64,000 nt of DNA from Allacma fusca (taxonomy: Eukaryota > Arthropoda > Collembola > Symphypleona > Sminthuridae), in contig OX359250.1 in the NCBI GenBank assembly GCA_947179485.1, positions 36,610,783 through 36,674,782 on the forward strand, given 5' to 3'. The translations under genes were made by a program, and so were the position numbers. The notes under the pieces were generated by a model that searched no databases, was not told the origin of the DNA, and worked only from the letters and a program-made list of their open reading frames with translations. Each line of letters begins with the position of its first letter. Position 1 is the stretch's first letter. Shown in pieces: positions 13,757 to 47,575 of the stretch.

Positions 13757-16735
13757 TTACACGCTGGTAACAGTTACAATTCGTGTTCTGTTAAAGTCTT
13801 CAATAGGCCCATTATAGCAATTACCATTCGAATGAGCCATAATGCTTCGAGGAGTCGTTCGGGGTGGGATCGGTGGTGGCGGTGGCCTTGAGGGTTTGTT
13901 CATTGTGGGTCTCTCCACGACGGGACTTCGAGAGTTGGAGTAGTAATTAGTTGCTGTAACCCATTCTTTAAAGAGGGAGATCACCACAAGGAAGTAAACA
14001 TGAGCCATTGTGATTGCAAGCAAAGGTAATGTCGCCAGGAATTTTACTCCTTGGGAACAAATCAAAATAATTGCTAGGACGCCCGATCCAATGAACACAA
14101 GATTCGTGATGAGGCTCCATTGAAGAAATTTCAAATCTTTCTGTAATATTGATAATACCCATGTAGTTAATTTTTTTCATCTTTGAGTATACCATAACTG
14201 CCTCAAGAAATACCATCTGGAGGCTTAATTCCTTCCTGAGCTAACAACCTTAATTTGTACTTGTACAGGGCGTTGCAACAATCTTCCTCTCCCTATTTGA
14301 TCGCATATCAAAACGTGTTACACATTTTTCGATCGCATTTCTGAATCCTTCTTTACCGATTTAAAATTTAAAAAAATAAAAATATTAGGATATAAATTAT
14401 TATTGACCTCAGGAAACCCATCTCGGTAAAATGATCGAAGCGAAATGTTTTTTTCTCGAAAAAGTTCTATTCTGAATTTTCGTTTGCAAAACAAAATCCT
14501 ACAAAATAATAATTGACACTTCAACTGCCCCTTGCAAATTTTATGGACCTTAAATTGAGCATTATAGCGGTCACTGCAGGAGAGTTCTGAACACTTTTTT
14601 TTATTAGTTTGACCTCAGGTCAAAAATGTGAGGCGTTTATGAGAGGAAATCTGGTTTGAGAAAAATATCAGTATTAACCAGTTGTTGTCTGTGACCAGAC
14701 AACTCACGCCTCTCGAGAGTCCAGTGACACATCAGCAATTGTCTGATTTTAAAGCCCATCAAATTAGTTGTAACCTGATCCATATTTTCTTGAATTCATT
14801 TCAAGAAATAAAATTCAGACTGGTAGTGGATTGTCTCAATCTAAAGCCCATAAAATTATAACAGCTCCAGATTCCTTTGAATTTATTTCTCGAAATGAAA
14901 ATCCAAAGGAGGATTGTCTTCTTTTAAAGTCCATACAATTAATTGGAAACTACATTTTAAAAAAATATTATTCCTGGAATAAAAATGAAATTTGAATGGG
15001 CTTGTGGCTTACATGAGCCAGGGGGGAAGAATAAGTTTTGAAACACGCTGTACAGTCATGACAGAACTTGTTCTCTCAAAAAATACATATTTACTGAAAA
15101 TGTTGCTCGTCATGTTGTCATGACCATTGGATACACAATGGTTGCGAACATCACTCAAATCACACACGCAATCTTGGAAAGTCCAATGGTATAGGAACAC
15201 CTGAGTGTGAATTTTAATCGTGGGAGACGAGAGAGAGCCAGGAATTAATTAAGCGCATGATATCATGCAGGAACACGAATCCCAATAACTCCTCACACAT
15301 TATTGATTGAGTATCGATTTCAGTTTTGAATTACCTTTATAATTGAAATAAAGACGCAAATTGCAGATGCTACAGGAAAACAAGCCGGTACAGCAAACGT
15401 GTAGAAGATATTTCGGAGAACTGTTCCAATAAACAACATCAAAAAATCATTTTAACATACTTGACAATGACAATTCCCAGACATGCCACAAATGTTAACC
15501 CGATTTTGTTTCATTCCATTCATTGAATTTCTATTCACCAAAATGATTATTCTGAATAATTACCCTATTTTCCGGAACACATCGGATGGAATTTAATACT
15601 TATTTAATACAAACTCATGGAATCATTTGTCCTTCCCAAAACACCCCCTTATCCAAAAATAGATTTTTAACAGGAATTATCCCTGCCCCCATAAAATATT
15701 TTTGATCATTTCAATGAATCCAAGAAACGAATCCGGTTACCATCGTCATAATTTGTATAACCTGTAGTAGCTTGACGCATTCTATTACCTTCAATAGAAT
15801 AAGGACTTTGAAAGCTTTCTAAAAAGTCTTGGCCATTAGCACGATACTGAGCGGTGTCATATTCTGAAGCCACGGACTCCGAGCCGATAAATATGAACAC
15901 AGTCCAGTACAAGCCCAGCATACTCAAAGGTCCTGTAAACTAAAGAAAAAATAATCGGCTTTTAGTGTCCTTCAAAACACTCTCATGTAAACATCCATCC
16001 TCGCAGTACTTCACAAGAGCTGACTTAATTGCAAAATAATTATCTTTATTGGCTCATACATACATACATCCTTACACATGGGTTAGTAGGGGGGACCCAA
16101 ACAGGAGTGTACATATCCCACTCTGCTTAAAACCATATCTATTTAATTACTGGAACATTAACACATTTTCCAGAGCCACTCACAAGTAAGATACAAATAA
16201 TTACTTGTATGTGCATGAAATGATCCCCTTGGCCTCTGAGTAAGTTACCGCCTGTCATTAGTGCGTGCAGTCCGCTCTCACTCTATCTAAGATAATCCTT
16301 TATGAGAGGGATTTCTCATTGGGAAAAAATATTCCACACATCCCGCATATATACGTATATACATACGCTCAGGCTGTAGAATGTAAATTTTTCCCATTAA
16401 GGCAGAGCATGCTAATATTAGAGAGTTTGGGGATATTTGAATGATGCTTTTTTTTTTATTATAGGGACTGCTCTGTAAATGTTCTTTGCAAACTCTTTGT
16501 GACGTTCCGTTCCTGTACTTGAGCCTTTTGAGATAGGGTCAGTGTGAGGTCAAGAGGGGTTCTGGACACTTGTTGGGAAGGGACTGAAGGAGAGGATGAG
16601 GCCTGCTCTAATTTATGTATAAATATAGAGAGTCAGAGTTGAATTTATTGATCTTACAAGTTTTAATATCCCGACTGCCAGAGCCCCGAATAAAGGTCTT
16701 AGACAAGGGCAGGCACTGCCACCACCTCCGTACAT
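13757..16735 (-). CDS. Small tetraspan membrane protein A, with long proline-rich C-terminal tail
   Basis: Four exons on the minus strand: 16658-16735 (26 codons), 15789-15939, 15335-15420 (86 bp) and 13757-14140; intron phases 0, 1, 0; product 232 aa. The N-terminus MYGGGGSACPC is followed by a first membrane segment that crosses the exon 1/2 junction (FGALAVGILKL / FTGPLSMLGLYWTVFIFIG). A polar loop to about residue 76 has no cysteines. Exon 3 is the second segment, and exon 4 opens with the third and fourth (residues about 112-132 and 135-158). Residues 160-232 form a cytosolic tail with PPPPPIPP, an SH3/WW-type ligand, absent from the other three copies. Size and topology resemble arthropod small tetraspans (DUF4728-type, pasiflora-like septate-junction proteins); this assignment is by eye. 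An in-frame upstream ATG near 16840 exists, but the Cys-rich start used here matches the paralogues. Confidence 0.8.
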
Positions 16736-17040
16736 CTCAAAGGACGAAATTGTGGTTTCTACGGTCTCTCGAACTCCCAGGGACTTTGGAAACCATGAAG
16801 AATTTGAAAGAGCACTCCTTCCCCTTACATGGATGACCACAGTAAGTACACTAGGGATAACTTTAGTCTGGCCATATGGCTCGTATTTAGCATTTTGAAG
16901 TAAAAATTCTAATATATTCTGTGAGGATCGTTGTCTGGGAAAATGTTACAGCCATTTCTCTCTGTCCCAGGTTAAAGTGCCGTTTCTCACTCGTCAACTC
17001 TTCCAAGACCGACGAAGAACTGGGGATAAATATTTTTCAC
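16736..17040. promoter_or_regulatory. Short divergent interval between two tetraspan first exons
   Basis: About 305 bp separates the start codon of tetraspan A (minus, 16735) from the start codon of a plus-strand tetraspan-like exon (17041). If both are expressed, this interval plus the 5' UTRs would be a bidirectional promoter. No clear TATA box or CpG cluster was seen, so this rests on position only. Confidence 0.3.
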
Positions 17041-17115
17041 ATGAAAATACCTTGCGGACTGGCCTGTATGCACCTCATTGTTAGGACAGGATTACTCATT
17101 GGGTTGTTCTTCTGG
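17041..17115 (+). CDS. Orphan first exon of a tetraspan-family gene (plus strand)
   Basis: Twenty-five codons from ATG to a consensus GTAAGT donor, phase 0. The peptide reads MKIPCGLACMHL, then IVRTGLLIGLFFW. Length, phase, Cys-x(n)-Cys then R-T-G then hydrophobic layout all match the first exons of the four minus-strand tetraspan genes (compare CGCVRPRTGAIIVGTIDT at 47575). I looked for a phase-0 second exon in the next few kilobases on the plus strand and found none convincing. It is either a gene with a long first intron, a gene whose later exons have decayed, or a duplicated fragment. Confidence 0.5.
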
Positions 17116-17640
17116 GTAAGTACGTTCCCTATACCCATATGGAGGAGCTGGCTGCATCAAGAGTTGAGGGTGAAACCTGAATAGTTGGGCTTGAAGTTAT
17201 AAGTTGGAACGAGACTTGTGCCTTGGCTTGCCTTTCCCAAACCAACACGAAGAGCAAAAAAAAATCCGTCTCTTCGGTACTACCCTATATATCCTCACAA
17301 TTATGCTCACCATAGTTCAAGATCATCATCCCTAGTGTATCTATAGATATACAGTATTGACTGTGTGCACGTAACAAAAAGGGGGAAAATCCGTCTGGCT
17401 TGTGCCTTCAGCTTCAGTATCACTTCGACCCACCACAATAATTCCAAACGAAACAAACTCCATACAGAGGAACCAGAGTGTTGGGTCTTGAAGGATATTT
17501 ATACTTTTCGTACTTCCCTGTATTTACATACCCCACAATCCTATGAATGATATCCTACATGAGGAACATTATTTTCTTCCTCAACACCCTCCAAGAGGCC
17601 ATATGTAGCTTTTAGCATCAAACCAGCATCCAACACATAC

Positions 17641-19568
17641 CATATCAACTTTCTCATTGGGATACTGCGGAAGCACTCTGAAACTGTGACAGGACTTGGC
17701 ACAGTAGGGGCTTTTCAGTCTGTCATTCAACATATGGAAATAAAAGCTATTCTATAGAAGAATAAAATCCATGGAGGAGTATCTACAGAAGAATAAGATC
17801 CATAGAAGAGTATAGAAGAATAAAATCCATAAAATAATATAAGTGGAAGAATAAGTTCCATAGAATAATATAGAAGAATGAAAACTATTTTATATCGGAC
17901 TAAAAGCCAATTAAAAATATTTGTATGTTTATCACCGACAGAGAAACCTGTGGAAATGGTACCCAAATATTTCCCTCGCACATAATCAACTTTCATTTTA
18001 TTACCTCCCCACATAGCTCTCCTCACACTTACAAATACATAGGACTCCTACAACAACAACACCTGCTCCTTGCATACACATACATACATACACCAGGTTT
18101 TTAAATTAAGTCCAATGCAAGTTCAAGAACATGCATTGTCCTTGTAACAAGTCTATTGCCTTAAGGATGAAGCTGTCAGGATAAATTGTTTGTTCGAGGA
18201 CTGAATAGAGCAATCGACGCCAGGAAGAAATCTCATGCATGGGAACATAATGATGCTCTTGCACCATTCCAATCTTACACCCATCTTCAGTCTTCCATGT
18301 TTCCCCATGTCGGAAAAAATTAGCCAACCTGTGAGAGGATCTATAGTTTGAAATGAAGCTCCTAGGTGGAAGACAAAATGTCATCTTTGGAGTTACCATT
18401 CTTCCGCTCTGAATCTTTACAAGAGCAAATGTGTCACCTGAATTTTTGCTGAATATTTTTTATTACTCATATTTTTTGTGTAGTTAATTATGTTGGGATA
18501 GCTGAATCGAACAAGACTGGGCTTCCTATAAATGGGCACAGTCCATGGCTTGTTGATGGAGTCAATCTTGCAAGGAACATGTAGTTCGGTACTGCTCAGC
18601 AAAAGAGTCATCACGAGCGCTCTCCTAATAAAAAATTAGTATTTTTTGAGGTACTGACAATGATTACAGGGGAGGAGGGATATGACTCAAATGAATGTAA
18701 TCACCGACATGTTTCATTAGAGCGTGAATTGCCGACATATAAACATAGCACTGTTTCTGTAATCTCCCGTCATTGTTCTCTTTTTATTGCATACTAATTT
18801 AAGTATAGTGTTAAAATTCCCCAGCGAAAAAAAATTCTGTAGATTGTACCGTGACGAATGGCCCATGAGTGGTAAAGTTGTTCACAATGATAAAGAGGAT
18901 TTTTTCCAATGGGACTGACAATGAGCCCAACTGTGTAATTACTCCATTCAATAAAATTAATATTTACGAAATTGTCAAAATTAAAGGAGAATTAATTTTT
19001 GAGAAGCTGCTGTACAGGATGACAACTATGATTTTTCCAAGATGCTTCCAATTAAAGGTTTTTTTTTCTCTTCTTCCAGACAGTGAGTTATTGACAAAAC
19101 GTGTTTTCCGTTTATATGTCAAGGTGTGTAGGATGAGTGGTTTAGAACACACTTGCATGGGTTGTATCATATCTTCATCAGGAATGACGTGGCTGTCAAC
19201 GACATTCCGCTCAAGCTAATTACAACAGACCAAATATCCTTAACACTCAAGGATTCTGAATTACAGACAAGATCAATGCAGTACTTTAGGTACAGTTTAC
19301 AAGTTCATTTGAAGATTTTTTCCCTGTAAAAAGGGTTGATTTACCTTTCTCATTACACTTCATAATGTACACTCGTGTGTGGACATGCTCTGCTTCTGAG
19401 GAGAGACGAGTCATTGGGAAGCAATAGTTGGAGCCAAATTAATTGCCCCTCACTTTTCCTTTCAGTGTCAGCCTTAAATTCCATAGGTAAATTAATTTTA
19501 ATCCACGGACGACTAACCAGAAGTGACGAGTAAGGTGTTCCCTTCAAATTTACCAACGTCAAGTTCAA
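17641..19568 (-). CDS. Unresolved minus-strand gene or pseudogene, secreted-protein-like, possible VWC-type motif
   Basis: Several protein-like blocks share one strand. Block 1 (19353-19568) includes NLTLVNLKGTPYSSLLVS. Block 2 (about 18426-18620) follows a TTTTTTATTAG acceptor and includes LHVPCKIDSINKPW and YRKPSLVRFSYPN. Block 3 (18106 to about 18437) includes FCLPPRSF, then FRHGETWKTEDGC. Block 4 (17641-17719), between an acceptor and a GTATGT donor, includes SPYCAKSCHSFRVLPQYPNE. GETW-x3-DGC is reminiscent of von Willebrand factor C modules, but the usual CxC is missing. Blocks 2 and 3 abut but are in different frames, with the change near an A6 run at about 18455, so there is a frameshift, an unseen intron or a sequencing error. 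The upstream exons and a signal peptide were not found. The blocks may not all belong to one gene. Confidence 0.25.
17742..17885. repeat. Minisatellite, AGAAGAATAAAATCCATAG-type unit
   Basis: About five to six diverged copies of a unit of about 24 bp (AGAAGAATAAGATCCATAGA variants) in tandem. Confidence 0.75.
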
Positions 19569-20880
19569 GTTAAATTTGACTTACAGGGGTCACAGTCAAG
19601 TCACATCTCATGAGCATAATTTTTCTTACGCTAGATCTTAATTAATTGTAGTCATATCGTTGATTTTTTTGTATCTAGATACTTTCAGATGTGCCCATGG
19701 AATGGTTATTCCAATAATTATACAGACGCAGTGGCTCCTCAGAGGAAATTAATTTCAGGGATTGTTGTTGAGCTACCAAATTGCTGGTATTTCCTGCCGA
19801 AATCCTCCTGGAATTAGTATTGTACAGGAATAGGCACATGTAATTAAGTACAATTTTTTTAAATTGTGCAAACTATTGTAAAAAAAAACGTTTTCGTTCC
19901 AGCAGCGGAAGTAGGAAAAAATTCAAGACTGGACGGAAGACATAAATTGAATCCCTCAAATTACAAACTCTAGATATCCTACACTTATTAGAGATACAGA
20001 AATTGCAGATGTAGGTAAATACAATACTTTATTTTCAGTCACAAGCTTCAAGGAGGATTCCACACTTTACGTACAACTGAATTTCTTCACATCCTTTAAC
20101 TTACAACAGACAGAACATACATAAGTAAAACATAAATGGAACTTAAGGATAATTCAAAATGAATACATTCAATTACAGTAAATTGTTCTTTGAACGAGGA
20201 ACCTTTTAGTCGACGGTTACAATAATAATAATATTATTATTATTAACAAGAAAAAAAAATAGTTTATACAAATTCATACAAATGGAGGATTCACAACAAA
20301 ACAATACGCTCGCCAGTGTGCTTTTATAATAGCACTATATTACATTAATACAAAACAAACCTCAGGACTCTTAAACTACATCGAGTCAAATAACAATAAT
20401 TATTACAACCAATTTCGAAAATTGACCTCAGGAGTGATCAAACTATTTCCCAATATCTCAAACAAGGCTGAAAGGGTCAACAGACAGGGAATTTGTTCCG
20501 AAGCCCAAAAGACACGTGGGTAACAGGACTTTGTTGAGGGACAGCTATTTATTTTCTAAAACTATTTGCATATTTCGTAACATCGATAAAAATGAATGCA
20601 CCTTCTTGGTAGCTGATGGTCTCCTGGACTGGATGACTTCCAGTCCCATACAATTCGACCTGGTTTTGAGGGAAACCAGTCCGTAAATCACAAGCTAATG
20701 GACCTTCATGAGGCTTAAGATTCTAGAGCTCCTCTCAATCTTCGAGATATTTAGAGAACTTGTTTTCTTTCACGCCAGGTAATTATATAGCTATAGAGAC
20801 AGACATGCTTGTGATATAAAACACTTTTGTAATAATATGTAATGGTTTGTAGTTTTTTTCCCCCTCAATCCCTTCACTTC

Positions 20881-23572
20881 CTATGCTTTGGAAATCACAA
20901 GCATCTCTTTATCATCTGTATGCTTCAGTTCCCACTCATATCTGCTGAAGTCCACCACTACCATGTAGAAGAAGCATTGGAGAATTGTGACGCTGAAGTA
21001 TGGCATGATCCCCACCCAATTCGCACCCGACAGAAATAAACAGAGAAGACAAGCGATGGAACCAGCAATGAGGATTGTGCTCAGGACAAATGACGAGATC
21101 ACCGAGCAGGAGGATTTCTGTAAGAATAAATATTAAAATCAACATTCGATTGTTTTTTTCTTTAAATACAATAATCTCAAAACTACACAATAGATCCCTT
21201 GTTATTACGATTCAAAATCTACGTTACAACCACTCCACACTTGAGCAGCTAGTTTTTAGGGCGAAGGAAAATTTTTCAAGTTAGAGAACAAAAAAATGCC
21301 TACTCATGGGGACTCTATTTATATGTAATTACATGCATACTTTTATACAATTACGTAAATACATTATACTCCATCATTGGGGAACTCCATACTAATTCTA
21401 GTTTGCTCACTGATTGTGTGAATATTTTTTGTATAATTAATTCTTCTGTCCTAAAAAAGTTTACTGCGCTCTTACTGTGATGGACGCGACGATGAGGACG
21501 ATCCCAAGAAAGAATAACGAGAGGGCTGGAAGCCAGAATTCTGGAATGAAAAAAATATTTCATAATTTACATACATTCGAGATACTTATGGCTAATGCAA
21601 AAATTCTGATTAATATTCATCCCATGGACAGAGCTCTTCAAGATAGCGAATGCCATTTGCCATTCATTCATTATGAATGATATTTTGAGGGTTACACACA
21701 CAAGTACGAAGGATTCATCTAAATTCAATGGAAAAATGGGACGAAAGAGTTTATTCTTTAATTCCTTTCTGTGTAGAGCCCAGAGCCTCTTGTACTTACT
21801 ATTAATGCCTTGCATCTTGAATGCCCAGGATTACATACGTGCATTTTTCCAGGCTCGGCATTGATAACCGATAACCGTTACCCAGCGGCGCCTGGCACTG
21901 TGTCTTTGCACACTGACCTTATCAGTCCAAATTTGACTCACCTAAGAGAAATTGGAAGGTATCTTTGATAGTATCATATCTAAGGGACTCCAACTGGTGG
22001 GGGTTTAGCATCGGGTCCAACATCATGTGTCTCTCCTTCGGACTTAAAATTACTAGCGATATTCCTACCACTCCGATTATCTGGAAAAAAAATGAAGGCA
22101 ATGACTTAGTTTTGTCCCATTTTATAAAAACAAAACAATATACATAAACATATGCTTCAATAGAAGGTTTCCGTAAAAAAACGCAGTTTTGCACTACACA
22201 CTGTGTACAGATCCCTTGTTATTTTCCCGTACTCTCCACAGTTATTATGTCTCATTTTTAGCGGTAAACACCTTTATTAGGGATGGTAATGGTAATTATT
22301 ATAATTATTACAGCAGCTTCAATGGAGACGTGTAATTACACAATGTGCATACTCCTGCATACTAGGACCAATCTCTCACACACACACACTTAATGATGCT
22401 CGCAAAAAGTTTTTATGTTGATTGCCGATAATGGGGGGTGGTCCCAGTCGTGCATTAAAAACATGGGAAATGTCACTGTCGAGCCGTTCCTCTCCACTGA
22501 CCGCTGATTACCTAACAATAGCTTTATCACATCTGGAGAGTGAGATCACACTCTCCAAATCATACCAACAAGCATTTCCATTTTTTTAAGGGCACGTGAA
22601 GCAATTTTAACTCACGAGTTTACTCTCGTTCATATTTTGTTACCCACAATCTACCACCGATAAAATTGGATATGAATCACATGCTCCTTAATTGACCATC
22701 TACCCTCCGTTTAGGACTGCTGGCGGACGAGATGGTCAAAAAGGAACTAAATGTAAACAAGGGCATGCCAAAGGATTTGAATCTGATTACTAAACATTTA
22801 TGTTTTGAGTATCAATTTTAATAAAAATAGTCTCTCCCTGAAATGATCCCAGAGTGAGGATAATATTATTATTTAGTAATAAATCCCTCAATTGTTATCC
22901 CAATTTAATATTATTTCTGCAATGAAATATCCCTTTTGAATCAAGCTAGCATTTCATACAGTATCCGCTCTATGGAATGATGACATAACATCCGGGAGAG
23001 TACAATTAAAACTAAGCCTTTTACTCCCATGAAGGAAGTTACAGAGAATTTCAGGGAGATAAGCAAACTAACACAAACATGAAAGGTCTTCACAAAAGAT
23101 CCGACGACCCATTAAGCCCTCATGTGACTATAATCTGCTTATTATACAATCGTATATTTACTAATGAGACCCAACTATCACATTAGCGTCTCTTCCTGGA
23201 ACCCTGCTCTGCATTTTAGTATCAGGCGACGACGGTAAATATCTCCAAGCCCCATGTATATTTGTACAAGCTACAAATGACTCATTAGTCCCGAGAATGA
23301 GCGTAAAAATTGCCAATGAAATAAAATTTGAATAGAATGAGGAAGCGTTTGAAATTGGGACTATCACATGGGGGAAAAATGTTTTTGATAAATGATAAAA
23401 GCAGTAAAAAAGGGCAGTTTTTGAGGCAGTAATAAAAGTGGATTTGTCATTTTTTTGAGGGAAATTTCAGGGAATAAATGTGAGAGGAACAGAAACTTAC
23501 CACGTCAATGACTCCTGCAATGAGCGTTCCCGTCCTCGAACTTAAACACAGGCAAGGTCCGAGCACAGCCAT
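20881..23572 (-). CDS. Small tetraspan membrane protein B
   Basis: Four exons on the minus strand: 23501-23572 (24 codons), 21942-22080, 21476-21540 (65 bp) and 20881-21117; phases 0, 1, 0; product 170 aa. It starts MAVLGPCLCLSSRTG and goes into membrane segment 1 across the first intron (TLIAGVIDV / IIGVVGISLVIL). The loop includes KERHMMLDPMLNPHQ. Segment 2 is FWLPALSLFFLGIVLIVASI, and segments 3 and 4 are in exon 4, followed by a short charged tail ending MLVISKA. Exon 3 is 21 bp shorter than the 86 bp of the other copies. Its donor (ACA|GTAAGA) is followed at once by an in-frame stop, so the short form is the only reading. Two short introns and one of 1.4 kb separate the exons. Same family as A, C and D: membrane protein, role unknown, septate-junction-type by analogy. 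Confidence 0.84.
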
Positions 23573-24666: not shown

Positions 24667-24689
24667 ACTCTCTCTCTCTCTCTCTCTCT
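24667..24689. repeat. (CT)n microsatellite
   Basis: About 11 CT units in a row, followed by a short CA-rich stretch. Confidence 0.88.
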
Positions 24690-33580: not shown

Positions 33581-34908
33581 CTACACAGATTCAATACTGA
33601 GCTCTAGTTTGATGAAGTCTTGGATGGCACAAACGAAGACAATTTGCAAGAATCCCCACAGCAGCAAAGGCATAGGTTCGATCCAATGTATTCCCAAGAT
33701 AAAGCAGATAACATAGATGGCCAGAGAACTGATAATCAGCACTATGGTCAGTACGTACGCAAGTCGTCCAACAATGATATTATTCTGCAAATAAATTATT
33801 CTCCGTAAGTCAACGCTTCTGTACTAGGGACAGTACTGACAACAAAACTTATAAAAACGAGACTGAATGTACGCATTACCATTGACACGGCAATCAGAGT
33901 GGTAATTCCAACAATAATGTTCAAAACCGACGGGAAAATCAGCGCTACAGCCAGTGTCCACAGTGCTAAAAATCATACATTATTTCTGTTAAATCTGAAA
34001 ACAATTTGATTAAAATTTGTTTTATATCGCTTCATCTCCCCAACTTACTTTCATAAGAGTCGTACTGTCCGTCCTCAACTGTCGTAACCGTAGCCTTCAT
34101 TTCATTCGTTTGTTCTTCCCGACGGACATCCACCAGCAAGAATCCCACAATTGCAATGCCCAGAAGACCTGCAATCTGAAAATACCATTAAATCGCCATT
34201 AATACTCTCTTAGAACAGCGCCATAAATCAGTAAGAAACATTTCTCAGTCATTAACCCCATCTCCACGACAAGAAAATCTAAAATAAATTATTTAAGTTA
34301 CTCAATCCTAAACAAAATCAGCAGACTCAAGATCATTTTAAAACTCCAAAGAATCAGCCGACATCGGATTCTGATCCGGACTGACATATCAACCATTGTA
34401 AGAACATCACCAGATACAATGCATTTAATTTCTACCTCATTGCAATTAAACCCAATAATAATGAATACAACCATAGGCAACTCTCGCCCCACCGTATCTT
34501 ATCGGAGCCTTATTTCTATCCAACATACAGCATAAGCACTAGATATTCAAATACGAAACGATACGGTCGAGGTCAGGCAAATCAGATTATGATAAATAAC
34601 TTAAAAATAACTTATAAATAACCCCCTACAACAGAGTTACCCCCAAAATTTGACACCTGATGTCAACTAAATCAGCGAAGAAGATTACGTCTATCAACAA
34701 AATTATAGATACTCAAAATAGTAAAAATCAGTTTCACTTGGAGTCACGCTGATGTCATTCAAAAAATCAACCAACAATTTAAAATAACGTCTTGATTTAT
34801 AAAAATCTTTTAATTTAAAATCTTAAATAAAATATTTACCACATCAATTAGCCCAACAAGTCTTGCTCCCGCTCTCGGACTGCAACAGCAACAAGTACGA
34901 CAGCCCAT
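33581..34908 (-). CDS. Small tetraspan membrane protein C
   Basis: Most compact copy: exons 34840-34908 (23 codons), 34049-34175, 33880-33965 (86 bp) and 33581-33784; phases 0, 1, 0; product 161 aa. The start MGCRTCCCCSPRAGARL has five cysteines in the first ten residues, likely S-acylated on the cytosolic face. Segment 1 spans the first intron (VGLIDV / IAGLLGIAIVGFLLV). The loop VRREEQTNEMKATVTTVEDG is charged. Segment 2 is in exon 3 (LAVALIFPSVLNIIVGITTL). Segments 3 and 4 are in exon 4, with HWIEPMPLLLWG between them (tetraspan D has PWIITIPV and B has NWVGIMP at the same place). The tail is only LELSIESV. The conserved W-[IV]-x3-[MI]-P between segments 3 and 4 supports one family. Introns are 95-664 bp, with consensus ends. 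Confidence 0.86.
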
Positions 34909-36344: not shown

Positions 36345-36455
36345 GATTAAATTCAAGTTTCAAGTAACACTCGAGTTTCAAGTAACACTCGAGCTTCAAG
36401 TCACTCGAGCTTCAAGTTGCAATAAAGTATCAAGTTACACTTGAGTTCTACTTGA
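36345..36455. repeat. Minisatellite, about 20-bp CAAGTTTCAAGTAACACTCG unit
   Basis: About five adjoining copies with small deletions. Looser copies (CAAGT/TTGAG motifs) extend left to about 36130. Confidence 0.75.
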
Positions 36456-36879: not shown

Positions 36880-37190
36880 TTTAACCAATTTCGGAAGAAA
36901 ATTGTATAAAACCCGGGTTACTCTGAACCTGGTTGACTGATTCGGCTTAACTTGTAATTCTGCTAAATTTTATCACTGGAGAGTATGTGCACTAATTTAA
37001 AACAAAATCAGAAAGAAATTGCATAACACCCGGGTAACTCCTAAACGGGTTGATCGATTCGGCTTAACTTCGAATTCTGATTTAGTGTACTACTGGATAG
37101 TATGTGTACCAATTTTCAGCAAAAACAGAAGGAAACAGCATAAAACTCGGGTAACTCCAAAACGCGTTTACTAATTCGGGCCCATTTATT
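36880..37190. repeat. 117-bp tandem repeat, about 2.6 copies
   Basis: The landmark ACCCGGGTTACTC / ACCCGGGTAACTC / ACTCGGGTAACTC recurs at 36911, 37028 and 37145, exactly 117 bp apart each time. Each copy also carries TGAT/CGATTCGGCTTAACTT and GGA[GT]AGTATGTG blocks. Divergence is moderate; no coding frame is kept. Confidence 0.85.
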
Positions 37191-37762
37191 TTCATGGCAC
37201 AACTTTAGGTCACGGCGGGTCGAATGATAGTTCGAACGTCACCGTAGATGTCTTCAGTGTCAAGATATGGGTGGGACAAATTTCGTTACAGAAAACAGTG
37301 TTCGTAGGTTCGCTTCGCTCCTAAAAATCGGAATTGACATTATGAAGCCTATAAAGGTACTACAATGATCCATTACAATGAGCCCAAATGCGGGTGACGT
37401 GTAGATGAATTTCCTCAACCTTGCTCTGTGTTCATACAGGTCATGACCATAGTTCTCCATGCAGAGACCTTTATGATAGTTCACTGGAAAGTCCATAGAA
37501 TTTCCTACAACAGCATGTCCAAACATGTTCCCAAAAAAATATTGTGCAGAAATAAACAGCTCAACTACAATTCCTTTAAAAATTCCGACTTTTGTTCACA
37601 TCTGCAACCTCACAAACTGACCGAGGTCAACGAAACAATTTTTTTCAAATCTGGAAAAGAATTGTTTTATAAACTGGGGGAGCTGCTCCCATATGTGGGC
37701 TGGGGGGAGAAAAAGCACATGATTTTGTATCTGTTCTCAAAGCCAAACAACTTCAAAAGACG

Positions 37763-39814
37763 ATGGTTAAGTCCAGGCTACTGTATCTTCGTTGGATTGT
37801 GCTGCTGTACTTTCATTTACCCCTAGTTCCTAGTTTCCATTATGGTGTGTGCGTGGGTCATATTCTGGAGGATAATTATATGAGTGTAAATAGTATAGGA
37901 AGTGGTTCCCAAGAATACCACGGAATTCTATTGAGCAGTGGTGGAACTAGGGCTTCAGTGTGTAATTTGAGGAATTTTCTACAATCGTTAATAAGACTAA
38001 ATTAAGATGAAGGTCTCACAAATTCCGGCTGAGTTTTACTTTCCCAGACACTGTATTACATTTATGAAATCATTGATATGAGTACAATTCTATTAATTCC
38101 AGGGTGTTTTGACACTCCTGAAACCCTTAAAAACACGTGGACTCCACATTACATTGTCTACCAGTCTACAGATGTCCGCGACACGAGGGACGAGGGAAAT
38201 ACATTGCTTGGTTGGTTAAGTGTCGACGTCGCTATTCCGGACGGTCTTGACGTATTCCTTATAAATCCTCAAGCTGTCAAATCTAATATGTTTATAGTAC
38301 CAGGAGAAGTGGTCACAACACGATTAACCCACAATTGTAAGGAAAAGTTGGGGAAGGAGGATGCAACGACGGCCACTTTCAACAAAAAGCATTTGGCCCC
38401 GCGTCTCTTCGCGCCAGACCCACCCACTACCGTTCCAAATGCTGCAACTTAATCTGGACCACGTCTTAAAGGCTTCCGATTAACATTTCGAACTGATTTT
38501 CCCGAATGTGCAACGACTCACTCAAATATGCCACTTGAGTTTGCATTCTTTGGGAACAGACAACGTGTGGTAACGGTCGGGGGGGGGGGTGTAGGCCAGC
38601 TGGTGTAGCCAATGCGTTCACCGCACCACTAAATAAGATTGTTGTACGGGACGATACATATGGAGGACATGATCCTGACCCACCGAGAGAGTTAGCCAAA
38701 GTTAGCTGCGACACACATTTAAATTCCTCCAAACGATGGGTTCAAGAATACAGCGCATATGCATTGCATACTGCCTCAAGCAAAAATCCACACCAGCCTT
38801 TTGAAAGAAGTTCAAATTGCTTCAGGAAAGCTGATCACAGTAAAAGCTTTGCAGGACGTTGTTTCTCATTTTCAAATAGTTCGGCCAATATTGTATCACC
38901 CAATAATAAGTACGCTTGCCCTTACCCTGAACGGAATGGACCTGGTTACGTTGAGTACATTCATAACAATCCTCCTGGTGAAGGAGTCTGCGAAGGATGT
39001 GTATATGGGCGAGAAACCGCACAAGAGAAGTGGGCTTGGCTTGTGCCAGTAGCATTGGTCAAAATATATGGGGCCTTCGATCCACTCATGGGATAGCTAT
39101 GGCGTGGACTGCTAGGGTCATCATACCCCTCTCCAATCTCTTGTCCCGCTACTACAAAGAGACCTTTATGAGTTATTGATACGTCAATGTCCATGTATGG
39201 CATGGAGTCCACGCTGCAGCTGGTTGGACAGGATTCGCCGGCCTTCTGGGTGGTTGGGTAGGGGCATTCGTCGGTCGTCTTTATTTTGGGTATAGCAAGA
39301 ACGGGTTGGGCTACTTACACTGGGTCATGGGTTACTTCTCTATTATTTCATTCCTGGTGGCCTTTTTTGGAAGCTCTGTCAGAATATTCGAAAGGCGATT
39401 CCGCCTTCTGGCCATTTTCTTCCACTTCTTGGCCGGATCTGTAACAAGAATCTCTGCTGGACAATCTGCCTTTTGTCGTCACTCTACATTCCGGGATCAC
39501 CAGCAGCCATGAAGGACGTCCACATGTCGGGATTTACCGTAGAGCCAGCTCTGTCAATTATCATTCCATGGGTCATTGTAGACGTGGCCGTACATATATT
39601 TCTCATGGTCCATTTAAAAACAACGGACAAAAATTCCAGGTTCCCTACTGTAAGAACCTACGCGATTGCCGTTCCTATTCCACTTATTAGACCTGAGGAC
39701 GAAACGGATTTTCCTGGAGCAGGGTTGCAGAAAATTCTGCTCATTGTGCACACAGTCGTGGGAATATTATGTGCCTTGTTACTTTCAATTTTCATGTCTT
39801 TCGCATTCTACTAG
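37763..39814 (+). pseudogene. Decayed cytochrome b561-type multipass membrane protein (DOMON/ferric-reductase-like), intronless as it stands
   Basis: Protein-like sequence runs for 2 kb in one direction but is broken. A signal-peptide-like start at 37763 (YLRWIVLLYFHLPLVPS) is followed by an extracellular-looking region from about 38090 (CFDTPETLKNTWTPHYIVY). That region is interrupted by TAA at 38450 and shifts frame near a G10 run at 38580-38590. A Cys-containing block follows to 39085. After another frame change comes a multi-membrane region: THGIAMAWTARVIIPLSNLL, TGA at 39177, then HVWHGVHAAAGWTGFAGLLG, GYLHWVMGYFSIISFLVAFF and FFHFLAG. A last frame change near 39480 leads to LSIIIPWVIVDVAVHIFLMV and a final membrane helix, ending at 39814. 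Spaced His residues in successive helices (HG, WHGVH, LHW, FHF) match the haem ligands of b561 proteins. AATAAA lies at about 39961. The extracellular part is not identified. Alternatively a gene with unusual introns, but several breaks fall inside conserved blocks. Confidence 0.55.
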
Positions 39815-40849: not shown

Positions 40850-41625
40850 ACATCTCTTGATTCCTATTAAGCCTAACTTCTTTTTGGATCTTCTGAGTTG
40901 CTGAATCTTCGATTTTGATGTAAGTTTATTTATGCTTCAACCTGACCTTTACTTGGAAGCATTTCTGCATTTCTTGATTGTAGTACAACTCCTCTTCCTC
41001 AATAAGTTGAATGATGGCTTGCTTCACCTCCATTACGTAGTATTACCTTACTTTATCAAGATAATGCAGGGCTTTCGAGCCTTGATCACTCTTCCTTAAA
41101 GATTTAAATTATACAAAGTCCAATTGAACTTGATCAATATCATCATCTAATTCTGACCTGAAATTCTGTAATCACTTATCATCAACGCCTTGGTATGCTG
41201 CGGATGCCTTTAGAAAATATTTATTTAAAGTTAGAATCGCCTTGGATTTTTCTTTCGCGTGAGAACCTTCCAAAATGGCACCTTCGATAGGGGCCATATT
41301 AGTTTGTGGAAACAAATTCTGCATGACATTGGAGTATTCTTTCAAAGCGGCATCCTTCGCTTGCATTACAGAAGATCTTACAATTAGTTCTTACTACTTC
41401 ATTTGCGGAATATCCAACAATTTTGTATGACTACCAGAATTCGAGTGTCAAGGTCGTATTACAGCTTGGCCAGGTACTTTTTGTCTGAAATTGGCAAGGA
41501 ACTTCGAAGAAACATTGGGTTGTATCGATCTTTTATGGTATTCGTGGAATAGCTTTTTATCTATTTATGTGATTTTGACGTACTTACTGTAGAACCAAAT
41601 GCAAAATCTCCCTCGAACCGCTGTA
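40850..41625 (-). pseudogene. Relic of a guanylate-binding-protein/atlastin-like GTPase
   Basis: The clearest part is minus-strand 41172-41366: AKDAALKEYSNVMQNLFPQT, a short linker, then EGSHAKEKSKAILTLNKYF. After an in-frame TGA (41172-41174) come LQNFRSELDDDIDQVQLDFV and a second stop. The order (A-KD-x2-x-Y-x3-M ... E-x2-H-x3-K-x-x-A-x2-x-F ... L-x4-L-x2-I) matches the middle helical domain of atlastins and GBPs. Upstream, LLDIPQMK is followed by tandem stops TAG TAA (41391-41396). Further upstream, about 41575-41625, FAFGSTVSTSKSHK resembles the G-x-T-V-x-S-x-T-K switch region of GBPs. Downstream, to 40850, a coiled-coil-like MEVKQAIIQLIEEEELYYNQ continues with stops. Much of the GTPase domain is absent, so this is a deleted, decayed copy. 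Confidence 0.45.
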
Positions 41626-41699
41626 GTAACCCCAACTCTTATCTTGTATGAATTTAAGGATTTTCGATATTTTGAGTTACAATTTTTAAAATGAACGTA

Positions 41700-43345
41700 A
41701 ATTTTGACCGGTTTTTGCACATAACTTTTCTTTTTGTCTAAAAGAAATTATCTGAGTCCTGACCCCCTCAGGACTTACCTTCTGATGACGGAGTTTTAAA
41801 ATAATTAAAACAAAATTAATTCATGTTTATTGGGATTCGGAATTTCAAAAAACCGATTTTGAGGCCTCCAAGTCCTTCCAAAAACTGGAATAGCTGGTCT
41901 TGCAAGGGACTTCTCGGTTGATATTAGCTCATTGAAATGTTATTTAATTGCCCAACAAGTTTCGGTCATGTCAGCCGAAATTTCGAAACCCTGGATAAAT
42001 TTTTTGCGAAGTTTTCAAATTTAACAATTTTCAACCAAAATTTCAACAATTATTTTCGTGAAGAAGGAATCATCTGAGACTTGGCCATCCCCCCTCAGAA
42101 CACATTCTCTTTCGTTGAAGTTGTTGAATAATCTTTTTTAAATCAAATTCATGTTCATTGGTCTTCAAAATATCAAAACAGCACATATGGGGTGCGATTG
42201 TAAAAGAAAAACTGCAATTTGTACATCCCGGTCAATAATGTCTCATTAAAAAGATGTTTAATCACTTTAACACCTAAAAGCATGTCAAGCGAAATTTGAG
42301 CGGGGTATTATGATGATTCATTGAGTTCCACCCACAATTTGAGTTTTATCTTGCCGAGAAGAAATCGTTTGAGACTTGGTACCCATCAGTACAAATTCAG
42401 TTTCCCGGGATAAAATTTTTAAATAAATTTCAAAAAATAAAATTTATGCCAACTATAGTTTTGAACTACACTATAGTGTTGAAATTTTTGACAAAAAACC
42501 AATTTCGGAAACCAATTGGAAATTCGAAAGAGTACAATAAGTATTGACTGAGCTGGCGTATCTAGGTCCAGGAGTACCAATGTCACTGGGATGGCACCTT
42601 TGGGACAACACTGTGGCAGCACTCCTTCCAAGTCTGAACCAACTTAACCATAGCGTCCGGAACGATAGACAAGTTTTTTGGGGTGGCGTCAGCCCCCTGA
42701 TAAAATCGCCTTGTCCGTACATACGTCCATGTGTCCTTCCGCCCGATATCTGAAAAACTACTTGACCGATTTCAATGAAATGTTTTACGGACATTTCTTG
42801 TGTCAACCGTAAACCTCATTTCATATTTGGTTGAAATCGGCCCGATAGTTTTTGAGAAAAAAATTCATGAGATTTTGGACTTCAAGTAAAATGACAGTTA
42901 TCTCCAAAACTACTGAATCTATTTCAATGCAATTTTTTGTGAATTTTGCTTATGTAAATAGTAAAGGTTATTGCTTATGCGGTTGAAATCGGCCCTATAA
43001 GTTTTTTGAAAACAAATAGGAAATTTCGAAAAAAAACTCAAAATTCATCCTAATTTGACGGCGGTAGCTGACACCACCGTACGCGAAGCCTCAAATCATC
43101 GCGTAGCGATGATTTTTCTATAGCTGTTAATTTTTTATTGTTGACAGTACTTAACTGCGAATGTCAAGCTTTATATTTGCCATTTGTGGGACTACTCATT
43201 TTAAGAGATTTGATTGCAAAACAAAAATAGCAAAAACAGTTTGTGATTAAATTTGATTTTTTAAATTTTAATCAACAACCTAAACGAAAGACAATTGTTC
43301 TGAGGGGGAGAGAGAAGTCTCAGATGATTCCTTCTTGTCAGTCAG
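41700..43345. repeat. Complex repeat block: about 300-bp direct copies with one inverted copy and a nested element
   Basis: A motif [AG]TCATCTGAGACTTGG... followed by CCCCCTCAGAAC recurs in direct orientation near 41745, 42065 and 42358 (spacing about 317 and 296 bp), each followed by AAATCAAATTCATGTT-like sequence. An inverted copy lies at about 43220-43340: the reverse complement of GTCTCAGATGATTCCTTCTT pairs with the copy at 42065 over roughly 110 bp. The block looks like a transposon-derived satellite or a degraded element with internal repeats. No transposase frame was seen. Confidence 0.65.
42684..43078. mobile_element. Possible non-autonomous element with short terminal inverted repeats
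   Basis: GGTGGCGTCAGC at the left end and GCTGACACCACC at the right end are inverted partners (11 of 12 bases). Inside are two diverged direct copies about 152 bp apart, each with AACTACT...GATTTCAATG(A/C)AAT and GGTTGAAATCGGCCC...AGTTTTT. No open frame. Sequences of the type CCGATTTCAATGAAA next to CGTCCGTACATACGTCC are common in dispersed arthropod repeats, but the class is not identified and no target-site duplication was confirmed. Confidence 0.45.
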
Positions 43346-45880
43346 AGTCATATTAGTTTAGGAAGGCCCTCCTCCTGATTTTGTTTCTTGTTGTGTAGAA
43401 AGATTTTATTATCCGTAAAAAAAAGTACTTATTTTATTATTTATTGTTTTTGTTACTGCCAAGCAGCAACGCCAAATAAATTTTAATTACGTAGGTACAC
43501 ATTTGTTGATGCACCTCTTTACCGCATATATGTATAAGTTGCAAATTCATCATCAAAAAATTCCCAAACTGCTATTACAATTGAGTACATATGATTTCCC
43601 CCTAATGACCATGGTTTTAGTTCCTAAACAACAAAAACGTAAAGTTGTCCATAATTGTCCAGAGACGTTGCTAGAAACCTCCAGGAAGTTATCTGTAAAA
43701 CACACCTTTTATTTATTATGTTCCTTTCAAGTGCTTTTGTTCCGAAGCGAGAACAATTTACATGATGTATAGTTGCTCTGCCTTCACCATAAATTCCTGA
43801 GGATAAATTATTTCTGTTGTTCTTGTCTGAAGCACTTTTGAGGAAAATGATTAGAACAATACTGGAACCACCCAATGGCATATACATACATGCCTGCAAC
43901 AGGATTTTAAAGCGGTTCCTTCCACGCTCAGTACTTATCCCCCTAATGACAGACGTGACCTTTGAGCCTTGTTCCAATTTGGCAATTCTGTTTCTCCGAA
44001 TGACAACAGATTGGTTTGAAATTCTCAGAATCCGTCATGATAAATAATGGAAACGCGTAAGTCAACTTCAACACGAACAACTGATGATCTGTGGTTACTT
44101 CTCTCGGCTTGAGTCATGTGTCATATTTTTTCTCACAACTAGAATAATAATTAACTGTACTACAATATGGATGCTTACAAAAAATAAAATACAATGGACT
44201 GACAAACTGATTACAAAAGTATAAATAAATCAGATGCTCATCTACACTTCAGCCTTGCATTATTTCCCCTCCTATTCACATACACAAATTATGTGAAATC
44301 AATTCATTTAAGAATTTTAAATGTTAAGGTATCAGAGCTACAGTCCATCAAGGGATCGTAAATTTACAGTCAATAATTTATATACCATTAAATAGTGAAT
44401 GCTAGTTCATGGCAAAGCTCCAGTATATTTTATGATTCTGCTTAATTTACTGTTTACAATTATTTTGGTTACTTAAATATGTCTATAGACTCAGAAATTT
44501 TAAGGGTATTCACCCTGGAAGTGTATGACAGCTGCCTATAATCATTTAAACCCTTCATACATTTTGAGATGAGAGTCTCTCCTAGATTTGAACCGCAAAT
44601 CTGGCCTAACAAAACCACTGACATTTTTCCTGGCTTAAAAATAAGGGCTAAAAATCCCATTACAAAATAAGATCCCAATAGTAATTCTGAGTATGTCCCT
44701 CATGACATAAGCCTCACGCTCCAAGGGAATCAAGCCGAAATGAATCAATTGGAGAGCGTGGGTCTATTGGCCTTCTAGTAACTTACTTCAGGGTGATTGC
44801 TATAGTAGCGAGAAACTGTGCATTTTATCTATTTCATTAATTTCTGCTTATAGCCCATTGACGTTGCGATAAGCGGACTTGTTGGGTAATGGTCTATTTA
44901 TTTACAAACGAAGTCACTCATGTGCATGACTCATCCCCACTCATTGGGAAATTGTTTACGAAACAGTGGATTCAATGGGCTCTTTTGTCCCAACTAAATG
45001 TATGTAAATAAAAAATAAATAATTGAAATGACTTTATACTGGTCTCAACACAAGTAGTATGTACATGATTATGTCAGCTATCGTCTGGTTGATTGTTTCC
45101 TAATTGAGATCCACTGGCTGTTCCAAAATAAGTCTGTTATTTGTTATTGTTCCTCACATATGTAGGATTTTGCTCTGGGCTAATTGTGAGATTTTACACT
45201 GGAACTTTTGTTTTGGCAGAGTTGCGTAAGGGATCATGGGTGGATAGAGTCTATAGGGAAAAATGTGTGGAGTTGTTGGAGGAGCACCTTGAGCTCCGTA
45301 GATTGTTATTGCTGCGACAGAGCCTCACCAAACACGGGAGCATTATTGCCGCACTAATAATGTTGCAGAGGCTGTGGTGCTAGAGACAGTCCTGTTTTGT
45401 TTTAAATTTATATTCCTCCTGTACTGTACACACATTTTGGTGCAAGGCATCTCTGAGGAAGGAGACTGACGTGAGGCAGTCCAACATGAAACAAAAACAT
45501 TGGTAATGGAGTGATTGACGAAGATTCACTTGGTACTGCTGACGTAGATACATTGTCAAAAACAGTTGCTCGATCATTAGTAATAACTCCGGCCATATGA
45601 GTTCCTATACACAGTCCCATATATATAATTAATTATCTCTACAAGAATATTTTTTGCTGGATTAGCTCCGATGAGGAAGTCAATCTATCTCGTCGATGAC
45701 AATGATCCAATAAGTGACTCAACCACGGATTAGAAATGCGCCATGTATAAGCTTTATTTATAAACAGAATTAGCAAACTTAACAACAAAAGATTTGATAG
45801 ACAGGCGGAAAAACGCCGTATGGCTACACAATAAAATATAACAAGGAGGGGGAAAGGAGAAGGGGGAGGAGGGGGTAATT
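43346..45880. other. Intergenic region upstream of tetraspan D's 3' end
   Basis: No supported gene. A plus-strand frame ending at 45383, with an acceptor-like TTTTGGCAG before it (ELRKGSWVDRVYREKC...), is protein-like in composition but unrecognised. TTTATT at 45753-45758 reads AATAAA on the minus strand, about 125 bp past the tetraspan D stop, and is its probable poly(A) signal. Confidence 0.45.
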
Positions 45881-47575
45881 TTACGAATAGCGTAAAATAG
45901 GTTTCAGCTCCGTGTGCCGATAGTCTTGGACAATCCATAAGAAATATATCTGAAGTCCAGCTGCAAATATGACTGGTATTGTTATTATCCATGGGGTTGA
46001 GAAGACCATCATGATAAAAAATATGGCAATGGAGCCCATGATTAGCATCATGTTTATCACAATGCAGATCGTAGCAAGGCAGAAGTGGTTCTGTGAGTAG
46101 ACACAAGCACATTAAAAATCTCCTTCCTTATCCCAACAATCTCCCATCAAATTCTTGTCCTACTCTGCCTAATCACGAGGATCCCATTCACATGTATATT
46201 TTCAATTTCGTCTGAAACTCATCCCTGGAGGCTCAATTCTTCCGAGTAATTTCCCTATACGTTTTGCTTATAACCACTCACACAAAATCTAGTACAAGGG
46301 AACCTTTATAGTCACAACCCTATGCATACAATCTTCTATCCCAGTAATTACCTGAACTGAAGCATTTTTTTTAGCTCGAACTTCCAAATAAACAAGATTT
46401 GTCTGTAATAGTGGATTCAGTGGAGTCTCATTTACTAAAGACAATTCCCCACGATCGCTTTACTAGGAGCTCCCTGTAAATGCTAAAAATTAGGAGTGCC
46501 GGGATTGGAAGGGAGTCCTTGCATAACTTGTATTTGTTTCGTATAACTTTACCTCAAAACTTGTCAAGTTTTTTCTTGCCCTATAAATCCTTCCCTGTAA
46601 GATGACTTCCATGCTTAAAGTATAGCACAGGCCCTTGACTTTTCAAAAGAGTACATACCATTATTTTTTAAAGCTATAGTTTGGGTCAATGTTGACTGTC
46701 CTTCCTATTAGTATGTTCTTCTTATAATATTTAAGCATCTTCAATTATTTTATTTATAAAAATTGTGACCTAAAAAAATTTGTGAGGGGGCGAGATTCAA
46801 AAATTAGGGATCCTGTCGGGTTAATAATTCTCACTTGATATTCCTATAGATTCTTATGTAATAATTATTATAGGTGTATATCATCCCTGAGTTGAGTAAA
46901 TCTATATACATACACTTGAAGGGATTTGTGGTGCGGAGAGGGGGGGGGGAAGTAAAAGTCTACTGAAGATAATTCTGGTAGGAAAAATGGGACTAACCAT
47001 GATGGCAGAGAAGATGATCATTACTCCCAAGAAAAAGGTAACGGTGGCTGGAAAGAGCCATGAAAGAGCAACGTACCAAAAGGCTGGAAATGAAAAATCC
47101 AAGTTTTACGGTTGAGTCCGCAACGCCGCCCCATAATATATCGTCCCTACTTAAATATGAATAGCGGAAGTATAAATCATTCCCTTACCTGCATTAAGGT
47201 TGTTAATGTGAGCGTCCAAGGCTTCACCAGGAGGTTCCAGAAATTTGCTATCTCTCTCCCGGATGCGGTTATCGTACAGGACTAAGCATGTCATTCCAAT
47301 GCCTACTGTACCCACGATCTGAAATATTCCATGACAAAAGCGGGTCAGTTACTGTATACAAAAAAAAAGAGTCCTGGGTTCTCTATACATACTTCCTTGA
47401 AGAGGGGGGAAAAAAATTGAACGTACATTTCACGGATAGCTTGATATGCCGATCACTCTTACAGGAAAAGCAGACTATACTGTCAGCCAAATATCAACTT
47501 CCTTACCGTGTCAATGGTTCCGACGATAATAGCACCCGTTCGAGGCCTCACACATCCACAGGCAGGACAAACCAT
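45881..47575 (-). CDS. Small tetraspan membrane protein D
   Basis: Four exons on the minus strand: 47507-47575 (23 codons), 47189-47318, 46998-47083 (86 bp) and 45881-46090; phases 0, 1, 0; product 164 aa. The start MVCPACGCVRPRTG is followed by membrane segment 1 over the first intron (AIIVGTIDT / IVGTVGIGMTCLVLY). The loop is NRIRERDSKFLEPPGEALDA. Segment 2 in exon 3 is FWYVALSWLFPATVTFFLGV. Exon 4 gives segments 3 and 4 (NMMLIMGSIAIFFIMMVF, PWIITIPVIFAAGLQIYFLW) and a short tail ending ILRYS. The donor of exon 3 is GTTAGT; the others are GTAAG. A longer open frame covering exon 4 in another frame (45639-46112) is a shadow. Closest in layout to C: equal exon 3 length, nearly equal exon 1 and 2 lengths, and a similarly short tail. 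Confidence 0.86.

What the first reader, a model, noticed from the sequence alone, without database searches (positions are those of the whole stretch)
13757..47575. Dispersed tandem family of four-exon tetraspan genes with identical intron phases
Four minus-strand genes (starts at 16735, 23572, 34908, 47575) encode proteins of 161-232 aa with a Cys-rich start and four membrane segments. In every copy intron 1 is phase 0 and interrupts segment 1, intron 2 is phase 1, and intron 3 is phase 0. Exon 3 is 86 bp in three copies and 65 bp in one. Sequence identity is low, so shared gene structure is the best evidence of common descent. This looks like an old tandem expansion that was not visible as long open frames. 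Arthropod septate-junction tetraspans of this size exist (pasiflora type), but identity to them is unproven.
Basis: partly seen in the sequence, partly recalled or inferred. Interest (0 to 1): 0.72.

Follow-up and report, generated by a model that had tools for sequence, protein, structure and literature searches.

The report
Springtail four-exon tetraspan membrane gene family
Four small, highly diverged membrane-protein genes sit in a row on what is probably a springtail sex chromosome; their matching splice pattern suggests that they are distant, undescribed relatives of insect cell-junction (pasiflora) and lysosomal (LAPTM) four-pass proteins.

Summary
Four minus-strand genes (A 16735-13757, B 23572-20881, C 34908-33581, D 47575-45881) splice as described: 12 of 12 introns GT-AG, phases 0/1/0 in 4 of 4 genes, exon 3 of 86, 65, 86 and 86 bp. 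Leave-one-out profiles recover exon 4 of each left-out gene: B, C and D strongly, A weakly. The genome matches the springtail Allacma fusca, probably chromosome X2. Three more members on chromosomes 4 and 2 (E; F and G from weak first hits) splice to the same 0/1/0 plan with 65- or 86-bp exon 3. E groups with B (97/97), so the family is not purely tandem. The predicted DUF4728 hit fails in 7 of 7 proteins; the pasiflora TM3 PW motif is absent in 7 of 7. A DUF4728 gene of the same genome shares the phase-1 intron before TM2 and the phase-0 intron after it. Two further exons, DUF7027/DUF4728-like and LAPTM-like, appear to share the phase-1 entry. Best reading: a divergent subfamily of a pasiflora/LAPTM-type superfamily; a junctional or membrane-organising role is inferred, not shown.

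The parts
16658..16735 (-). gene A exon 1 (78 nt), first half of TM1, donor phase 0
15789..15939 (-). gene A exon 2 (151 nt), rest of TM1 and loop 1, ends phase 1
15335..15420 (-). gene A exon 3 (86 nt), TM2, phase 1 to 0
   Evidence: an internal donor would give 65 nt
13757..14140 (-). gene A exon 4 (384 nt), TM3, TM4 and proline-rich tail, stop
23501..23572 (-). gene B exon 1 (72 nt)
21942..22080 (-). gene B exon 2 (139 nt)
21476..21540 (-). gene B exon 3 (65 nt), 7 codons shorter than in A, C, D; same length in gene E on chromosome 4
20881..21117 (-). gene B exon 4 (237 nt), TM3 and TM4, stop
34840..34908 (-). gene C exon 1 (69 nt), Cys-rich start
34049..34175 (-). gene C exon 2 (127 nt)
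33880..33965 (-). gene C exon 3 (86 nt)
33581..33784 (-). gene C exon 4 (204 nt), stop
47507..47575 (-). gene D exon 1 (69 nt), C-x-C and RTG motif
47189..47318 (-). gene D exon 2 (130 nt)
46998..47083 (-). gene D exon 3 (86 nt)
45881..46090 (-). gene D exon 4 (210 nt), stop; first poly(A)-type signal 123 nt downstream (45758)

Best explanation
A to G are a springtail family of small (150-232 aa) four-pass membrane proteins. They form a divergent subfamily of a wider superfamily that includes pasiflora (DUF4728) and LAPTM (Mtp) proteins. SHOWN: homology among B-G (A is the weakest member), a four-exon 0/1/0 plan in 7 of 7 spliced models, four hydrophobic segments in A-D, and the same phase-1 intron before TM2 and phase-0 intron after it in a DUF4728 gene of the same genome. 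INFERRED: superfamily membership, cytosolic termini, and a Cys-rich N-terminus with a C-x-C/R-x-G motif leading into TM1. The proteins probably pack side by side in one membrane with partner proteins, as proposed for pasiflora and claudins in septate junctions, each copy perhaps serving its own epithelial or glial type. They look like old paralogues spread by tandem and interchromosomal duplication. Exon 3 codes for TM2; 86 bp is the commoner state, and the 65-bp form probably arose before B and E separated.
For: Exon plan in A-D. E, F, G found by sequence and then spliced by hand: phases 0/1/0 in 3 of 3, exon 3 of 65, 86 and 86 nt. In E only one AG-GT pair fits the exon 3 frame, and it gives 65 nt. 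B-E group 97/97; z 11.6 (D-F), 14.1 (B-G), 12.8 (D-G). DUF4728 gene H (C5:4130328-4125031), exons 2-5 spliced: Pfam DUF4728 30.4 bits, cut-off 26.7. Its TM2 exon is 83 nt with a single in-frame acceptor, phase 1 in and, at its best donor, phase 0 out. The DUF7027/DUF4728-like exon L036 enters TM2 at phase 1, and the LAPTM-like exon L039 does so at its first AG. The recalled LAPTM4A itself weakly hits DUF4728 (E 0.014) and DUF7027 (E 0.0014), both below cut-off. The pasiflora description (169 and 258 aa, four TMs, intracellular ends, larger first loop; PMC4582180 section 9) fits the hydropathy of A-D.
Against: No Pfam hit to DUF4728, Mtp or DUF7027 for 7 of 7 proteins at E up to 10, although HMMER filters drop most weak matches, nor for the consensus of A-D. 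PW at TM3 absent in 7 of 7; VxS at the TM4 boundary only in A. The profile against gene H gives no meaningful alignment (probability 1%; H lacks its exon 1). L036 and L039 have no intron between TM2 and TM3, and in L039 a second AG two bases on would give phase 0. H exon 1 was not found, so the phase of its first intron is unproven. A is weakly tied to E and F (z 2.8 and 2.1), and the own-genome search with A found none of B-G. F and G were first seen at weak E-values (0.107; 0.47 and 0.0496). F has a very short loop 1, so an exon may be missing, and its exon 3 donor is weak. Nothing tested here bears on cellular function.
Confidence: 0.6

Rival explanations
1. A-G are nearer to LAPTM-type endolysosomal or Golgi four-pass proteins, sorting cargo in internal membranes rather than building junctions.
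For: The exon 1 motif aligns with the recalled LAPTM4A N-terminus (E 6e-4, 0 of 400 shuffles). A LAPTM-like exon of the same genome appears to have the same phase-1 entry before TM2.
Against: No Mtp hit for 7 of 7. The LAPTM-like exon L039 has no intron between TM2 and TM3, whereas A-G and the DUF4728 gene H do. From reading the sequence, gene A's proline-rich tail has no PPxY motif (that motif is recalled as typical of LAPTM).
Confidence: 0.25
2. A-G are true tetraspanins or claudins that have diverged beyond recognition.
For: Four passes and similar size.
Against: The nine ancestral tetraspanin introns are all phase 0 (PMC2650405, passages), whereas intron 2 is phase 1 in 7 of 7 here; derived tetraspanin introns can be phase 1 or 2, so this is not absolute. 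No Pfam tetraspanin or claudin hit; no claudin or tetraspanin chain among the 8 and 4 PDB rows listed up to E 10.
Confidence: 0.04
3. A-G are an orphan springtail four-pass family whose shared intron phases with DUF4728 and LAPTM genes are coincidence.
For: No significant sequence link of A-G to any Pfam family. The comparison genes were few, chosen and spliced by hand.
Against: The position directly before TM2, as well as the phase, agrees in the 3 comparison genes used (one of them with an alternative acceptor). H also shares the phase-0 intron after an 83-nt TM2 exon. The N-terminal motif match to LAPTM4A is independent of introns.
Confidence: 0.25
4. Some copies are decayed or mis-spliced, and the array is partly pseudogenes.
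For: No transcript evidence; A is the most diverged and its first poly(A)-type signal is 932 nt downstream.
Against: All four frames are open over four exons with GT-AG sites. GC3 is above intron GC. Poly(A)-type signals lie 123-333 nt after the stops of B, C and D, weak evidence in AT-rich DNA.
Confidence: 0.08

Closest known systems
Pasiflora family (DUF4728, PF15860; Drosophila Pasiflora1/2, Fire exit; PMC4582180)
   Same: Small four-pass proteins with a larger first loop (A-D by hydropathy; F is an exception). A DUF4728 gene of the same genome shares the phase-1 intron before TM2 and the phase-0 intron between TM2 and TM3.
   Different: No Pfam match in 7 of 7; no PW at TM3 in 7 of 7; TM4 ends with [VI]-x-D-[FY] in 4 of 7 in place of VxS(QYQ). 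TM3 and TM4 share one exon, whereas H has further introns there.
LAPTM / Mtp family (PF03821)
   Same: N-terminal C-x-C and R-T-G motif running into TM1 (alignment to a recalled human LAPTM4A); apparent phase-1 intron before TM2 in the springtail LAPTM-like exon.
   Different: No Pfam match; an intron between TM2 and TM3 that the LAPTM-like exon lacks.
DUF7027 (PF22954)
   Same: A springtail exon matching it best (L036, sub-threshold) also enters TM2 at phase 1.
   Different: No match of A-G to the family; L036 has PW at TM3 and no intron between TM2 and TM3.
Tetraspanins (PF00335)
   Same: Four passes, intron plan conserved across paralogues.
   Different: Tetraspanin ancestral introns are all phase 0 (PMC2650405, passages); here intron 2 is phase 1. 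No Pfam match.

Membership tests
Pasiflora (DUF4728) | Pfam PF15860 match | tested here: not met
   0 of 7 proteins; consensus of A-D also none. Positive control: gene H of the same genome 30.4 bits, cut-off 26.7.
Pasiflora (DUF4728) | PW motif at the beginning of TM3 (PMC4582180 section 9) | tested here: not met
   0 of 7 at TM3; six proteins have no PW at all, D has one at residue 128, between TM3 and TM4.
Pasiflora (DUF4728) | VxSQYQ, or VxS, at the TM4/C-terminus boundary (Pasiflora1 and 2) | tested here: not met
   VxS at that place in A only (residue 158), 1 of 7; [VI]xD[FY] there in B, C, D, F.
Pasiflora (DUF4728) | Four TMs, intracellular termini, larger first loop, 169-258 aa | tested here: inconclusive
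   Four segments in A-D and a larger, acidic loop 1. Orientation is only a hydropathy/charge guess; E-G were not scanned for segments; F has a very short loop 1.
Pasiflora (DUF4728) | Intron positions of DUF4728 genes | tested here: met
   Introns 2 (phase 1) and 3 (phase 0) shared with gene H, one gene only; intron 1 of H likely phase 0 but unproven.
Pasiflora (DUF4728) | Septate-junction localisation | not testable with these tools
   Needs tagged protein or antibody.
LAPTM (PF03821) | Pfam Mtp match | tested here: not met
   0 of 7; recalled LAPTM4A gives 78 bits.
LAPTM (PF03821) | N-terminal CC-x-CC...RTG motif before TM1 (recalled from LAPTM4A) | tested here: met
   hhalign of the A-G profile, E 6e-4 over 26 columns, probability 28.9%, 0 of 400 shuffles. 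One recalled sequence only.
Tetraspanin (PF00335) | Ancestral introns all phase 0 | tested here: not met
   Intron 2 is phase 1 in 7 of 7; PMC2650405 passages.
Tetraspanin (PF00335) | Pfam match | tested here: not met
   0 of 7.

The most novel reading that the evidence does not exclude
The phase-1 intron directly before TM2 is an ancient landmark of one animal superfamily that joins LAPTM, DUF7027, pasiflora (DUF4728) and this unrecognised springtail subfamily. Insect septate-junction pasifloras and lysosomal LAPTMs would then descend from one four-pass ancestor, and hidden relatives could be found by intron plan where sequence searches fail. (Probability lowered from 0.45 to 0.40 on checking: the LAPTM-like exon allows a second acceptor with another phase.)
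Probability: 0.4. Interest if true: 0.5.

Novelty: new variant of a known kind. Interest (0 to 1): 0.38.

Why it matters
Pasiflora proteins were reported to show no sequence similarity to claudins or other tetraspan families (PMC4582180 section 9). Here splice positions may carry information where sequence has faded. They give a testable route to place an undescribed springtail family and to ask whether junctional pasifloras and endolysosomal LAPTMs share an origin. The case also shows how such genes escape open-frame or Pfam scans of raw DNA: exons 1-3 are only 40-151 nt long, and even the DUF4728 gene H passes its Pfam cut-off only after splicing.

Tried and rejected
Pfam on A-D, on their consensus and on E-G gave no family over a cut-off; weak rows such as DUF6056 (B), DUF4064 (C and the consensus, E 0.01 and 0.0032) and DUF6320 (E) are far below theirs. 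NCBIfam with D gave one chance row (E 3.6). PDB profile searches gave 8 and 4 rows, the best E 0.22 and 0.018 (a designed membrane protein, TMH4C4), which I take as chance. A profile search of viral contigs could not start. The DUF4728 place L009 is a long multi-pass frame that looks chemoreceptor-like to me and was set aside. Own-genome DUF7027 and Mtp searches gave 2 and 4 sub-threshold places. I judged 2 of 6 (L036, L039) usable for intron comparison; L037 was looked at and not resolved, and L038, L040 and L041 were not judged relatives. Exon 1 of H was not found within about 6 kb upstream. A search with D gave C1:78494209 at E 8.1, not a member by profile; a search with A gave two places at E 3.6 and 4.1 that I did not examine.

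Classical tetraspanin identity was rejected on intron phases. A purely tandem origin was rejected on the B-E group; the other forks of that tree are weak and three branches are long, so the order of the other genes is unknown.
Full report
What is there. Four genes lie on the minus strand of the window over 34 kb. Splicing gives A (232 aa), B (170), C (161) and D (164). All 12 introns are GT-AG and the phases are 0, 1, 0 in 4 of 4 genes. Exon 3 is 86 nt in A, C and D and 65 nt in B. Hydropathy shows four segments in 4 of 4, with intron 1 inside the first. No fifth copy was seen in the window or in about 20 kb on either side of it.

More than chance. Profiles built from three genes and run over the window's reading frames recover exon 4 of the fourth: E 1.2e-8 (B), 1.1e-7 (C), 1.2e-8 (D) and 0.0032 (A). 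Pairwise z-scores against locally shuffled sequence run from 4.0 (A-B, 2 of 500 shuffles reach it) to 13.3 (C-D). Third-position GC of A-D is 0.41-0.58, intron GC 0.356. A is the weakest member: its other exons were not among the printed rows, its z with E and F is only 2.8 and 2.1, and an own-genome search with A found none of B-G. Its place in the family rests on exon 4, on z 6.1 with C and D and 8.5 with G, and on the gene plan.

Which genome. The window is C9:36610783-36674782 of a 392,743,791-base assembly in 91 contigs. Contigs C8 (75,608,127), C12 (58,810,162) and C5 (55,591,601) match chromosomes 2, 4 and X1 (75.61, 58.81, 55.59 Mb) of the springtail Allacma fusca (PMC10427803, passages). 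C9 (48,059,808) is nearest to X2, listed as 48.07 Mb. The paper gives 392.8 Mb in 95 scaffolds, so contig number and the X2 length differ slightly. The species is an inference from these lengths.

The family elsewhere. Own-genome searches with D and B found three places outside the window that proved to hold a whole gene: E (C12, 12.70 Mb; E 2.6e-11 with B), F (C8, 59.71 Mb; E 0.107 with D) and G (C8, 42.02 Mb; E 0.47 with D, 0.0496 with B). The first hits of F and G are weak alone. Their membership rests on the profile matches of exons 1 and 4 in those loci, on z 11.6 (D-F), 14.1 (B-G) and 12.8 (D-G) of the spliced proteins, and on the plan. A search with C found only window genes, and one with A nothing convincing. 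I spliced E, F and G by hand: phases 0/1/0 in 3 of 3, exon 3 of 65, 86 and 86 nt. Counting AG-GT pairs that keep the exon 3 frame, E allows one pair, which gives 65 nt. F allows two phase-compatible pairs (86, 140), G six, A two (65, 86), B four, C twelve and D three, so the choice was partly guided. F's exon 3 donor is weak and its loop 1 very short. The tree supports only one fork, B with E (97/97), the two genes with the short exon 3. The family has therefore spread between chromosomes as well as in tandem. Searches with E, F, G and H did not complete, so seven is a lower bound.

Is it DUF4728? Directly, no. Pfam gives no DUF4728, Mtp, DUF7027 or tetraspanin match for 7 of 7 proteins at E up to 10, and none for the consensus. 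The pasiflora paper (PMC4582180; abstract and sections 9, 15, 21 read) names a PW motif at the start of TM3 and VxSQYQ or VxS at the end of TM4. PW is absent from TM3 in 7 of 7, and VxS is at the TM4 boundary in 1 of 7.

Indirectly, perhaps. The own-genome search with DUF4728 gave 2 sub-threshold places. One, on C5, lies in a gene (H) whose exons 2-5, once spliced, reach 30.4 bits against a cut-off of 26.7. H has PW at the start of TM3. Its TM2 exon is 83 nt with one possible in-frame acceptor, entered in phase 1, and left in phase 0 at the strongest of three donors, as in A-G. H exon 2 most likely starts in phase 0, but other acceptors fit and exon 1 was not found. H has further introns after TM3 that A-G lack. 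A DUF7027/DUF4728-like exon (L036, C8) enters TM2 in phase 1; a LAPTM-like exon (L039, C10) does so at its first AG, while a second AG two bases on would give phase 0. Both run through TM2 and TM3 without an intron, and as single exons both score below the Pfam cut-offs. So the phase-1 intron before TM2 is in 10 of the 10 genes compared, one of them ambiguous, and the phase-0 intron after TM2 in 8 of 10 (A-G and H). The three comparison genes are those I judged usable among 8 places of three family searches.

The N-terminus. The hhalign E-value is 6e-4 over 26 columns, probability 28.9%, and 0 of 400 local shuffles reach that score. The same LAPTM4A weakly matches DUF4728 (E 0.014) and DUF7027 (E 0.0014), below their cut-offs, so these families may be one superfamily. 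The profile against H, which lacks its first exon, gave nothing.

How it probably works. Shown: four hydrophobic segments and an acidic first loop in A-D, a short N-terminus before TM1 that is Cys-bearing in six of seven (none in E), and TM2 as its own exon. Inferred: cytosolic ends and side-by-side packing in the membrane, as proposed for pasifloras and claudins in septate junctions (PMC4582180 section 15), with copies specialised by tissue. A LAPTM-like role in internal membranes is the main rival. Classical tetraspanins are unlikely: their nine ancestral introns are all phase 0 (PMC2650405, abstract and passages).

In print. Searches of the held library found one paper with DUF4728, a tardigrade genome paper that lists it among families new in Tardigrada plus Arthropoda (one passage), six with pasiflora and septate junction (listing) and none with DUF7027. 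A search for Collembola, tetraspan and septate junction found 68 papers with two of the three terms, and none of the 10 listed contained Collembola. The listings (10 and 8 rows shown) also showed no springtail family. I saw no description of this family in those listings; unlisted papers were not seen.

Noticed in passing
window about 9025-9610 (+) and about 11961-11617 (-): Two small Cys-rich frames with similar Cys spacing, on opposite strands; the first has what looks like a signal-peptide first exon. No Pfam hit at E up to 1 for the main exon of either.
   Followed up: partly
window 37400-39811 (+): Several overlapping hydrophobic frames between genes C and D look like a multi-pass membrane gene, spliced or decayed. 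Five of these frames were scanned with Pfam and none passed a cut-off.
   Followed up: partly
window 51659-51777 (-) and 52021-52092 (+): A 5S rRNA gene and a tRNA-Gln (TTG) gene about 240 bp apart on opposite strands.
   Followed up: no
window about 41300-43100 (-): On reading, a stretch with recurring phrases that looks like an old dispersed repeat or transposon; not tested.
   Followed up: no
L033 and L034 (C5 about 4123000-4134500): Arrays of short satellite-like repeats lie on both sides of the DUF4728 gene H.
   Followed up: no
L036 (C8:63716703-63716906, minus): A further PW-bearing four-pass-type exon (DUF7027/DUF4728-like), TM2 and TM3 in one exon; the rest of the gene was not read.
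   Followed up: partly
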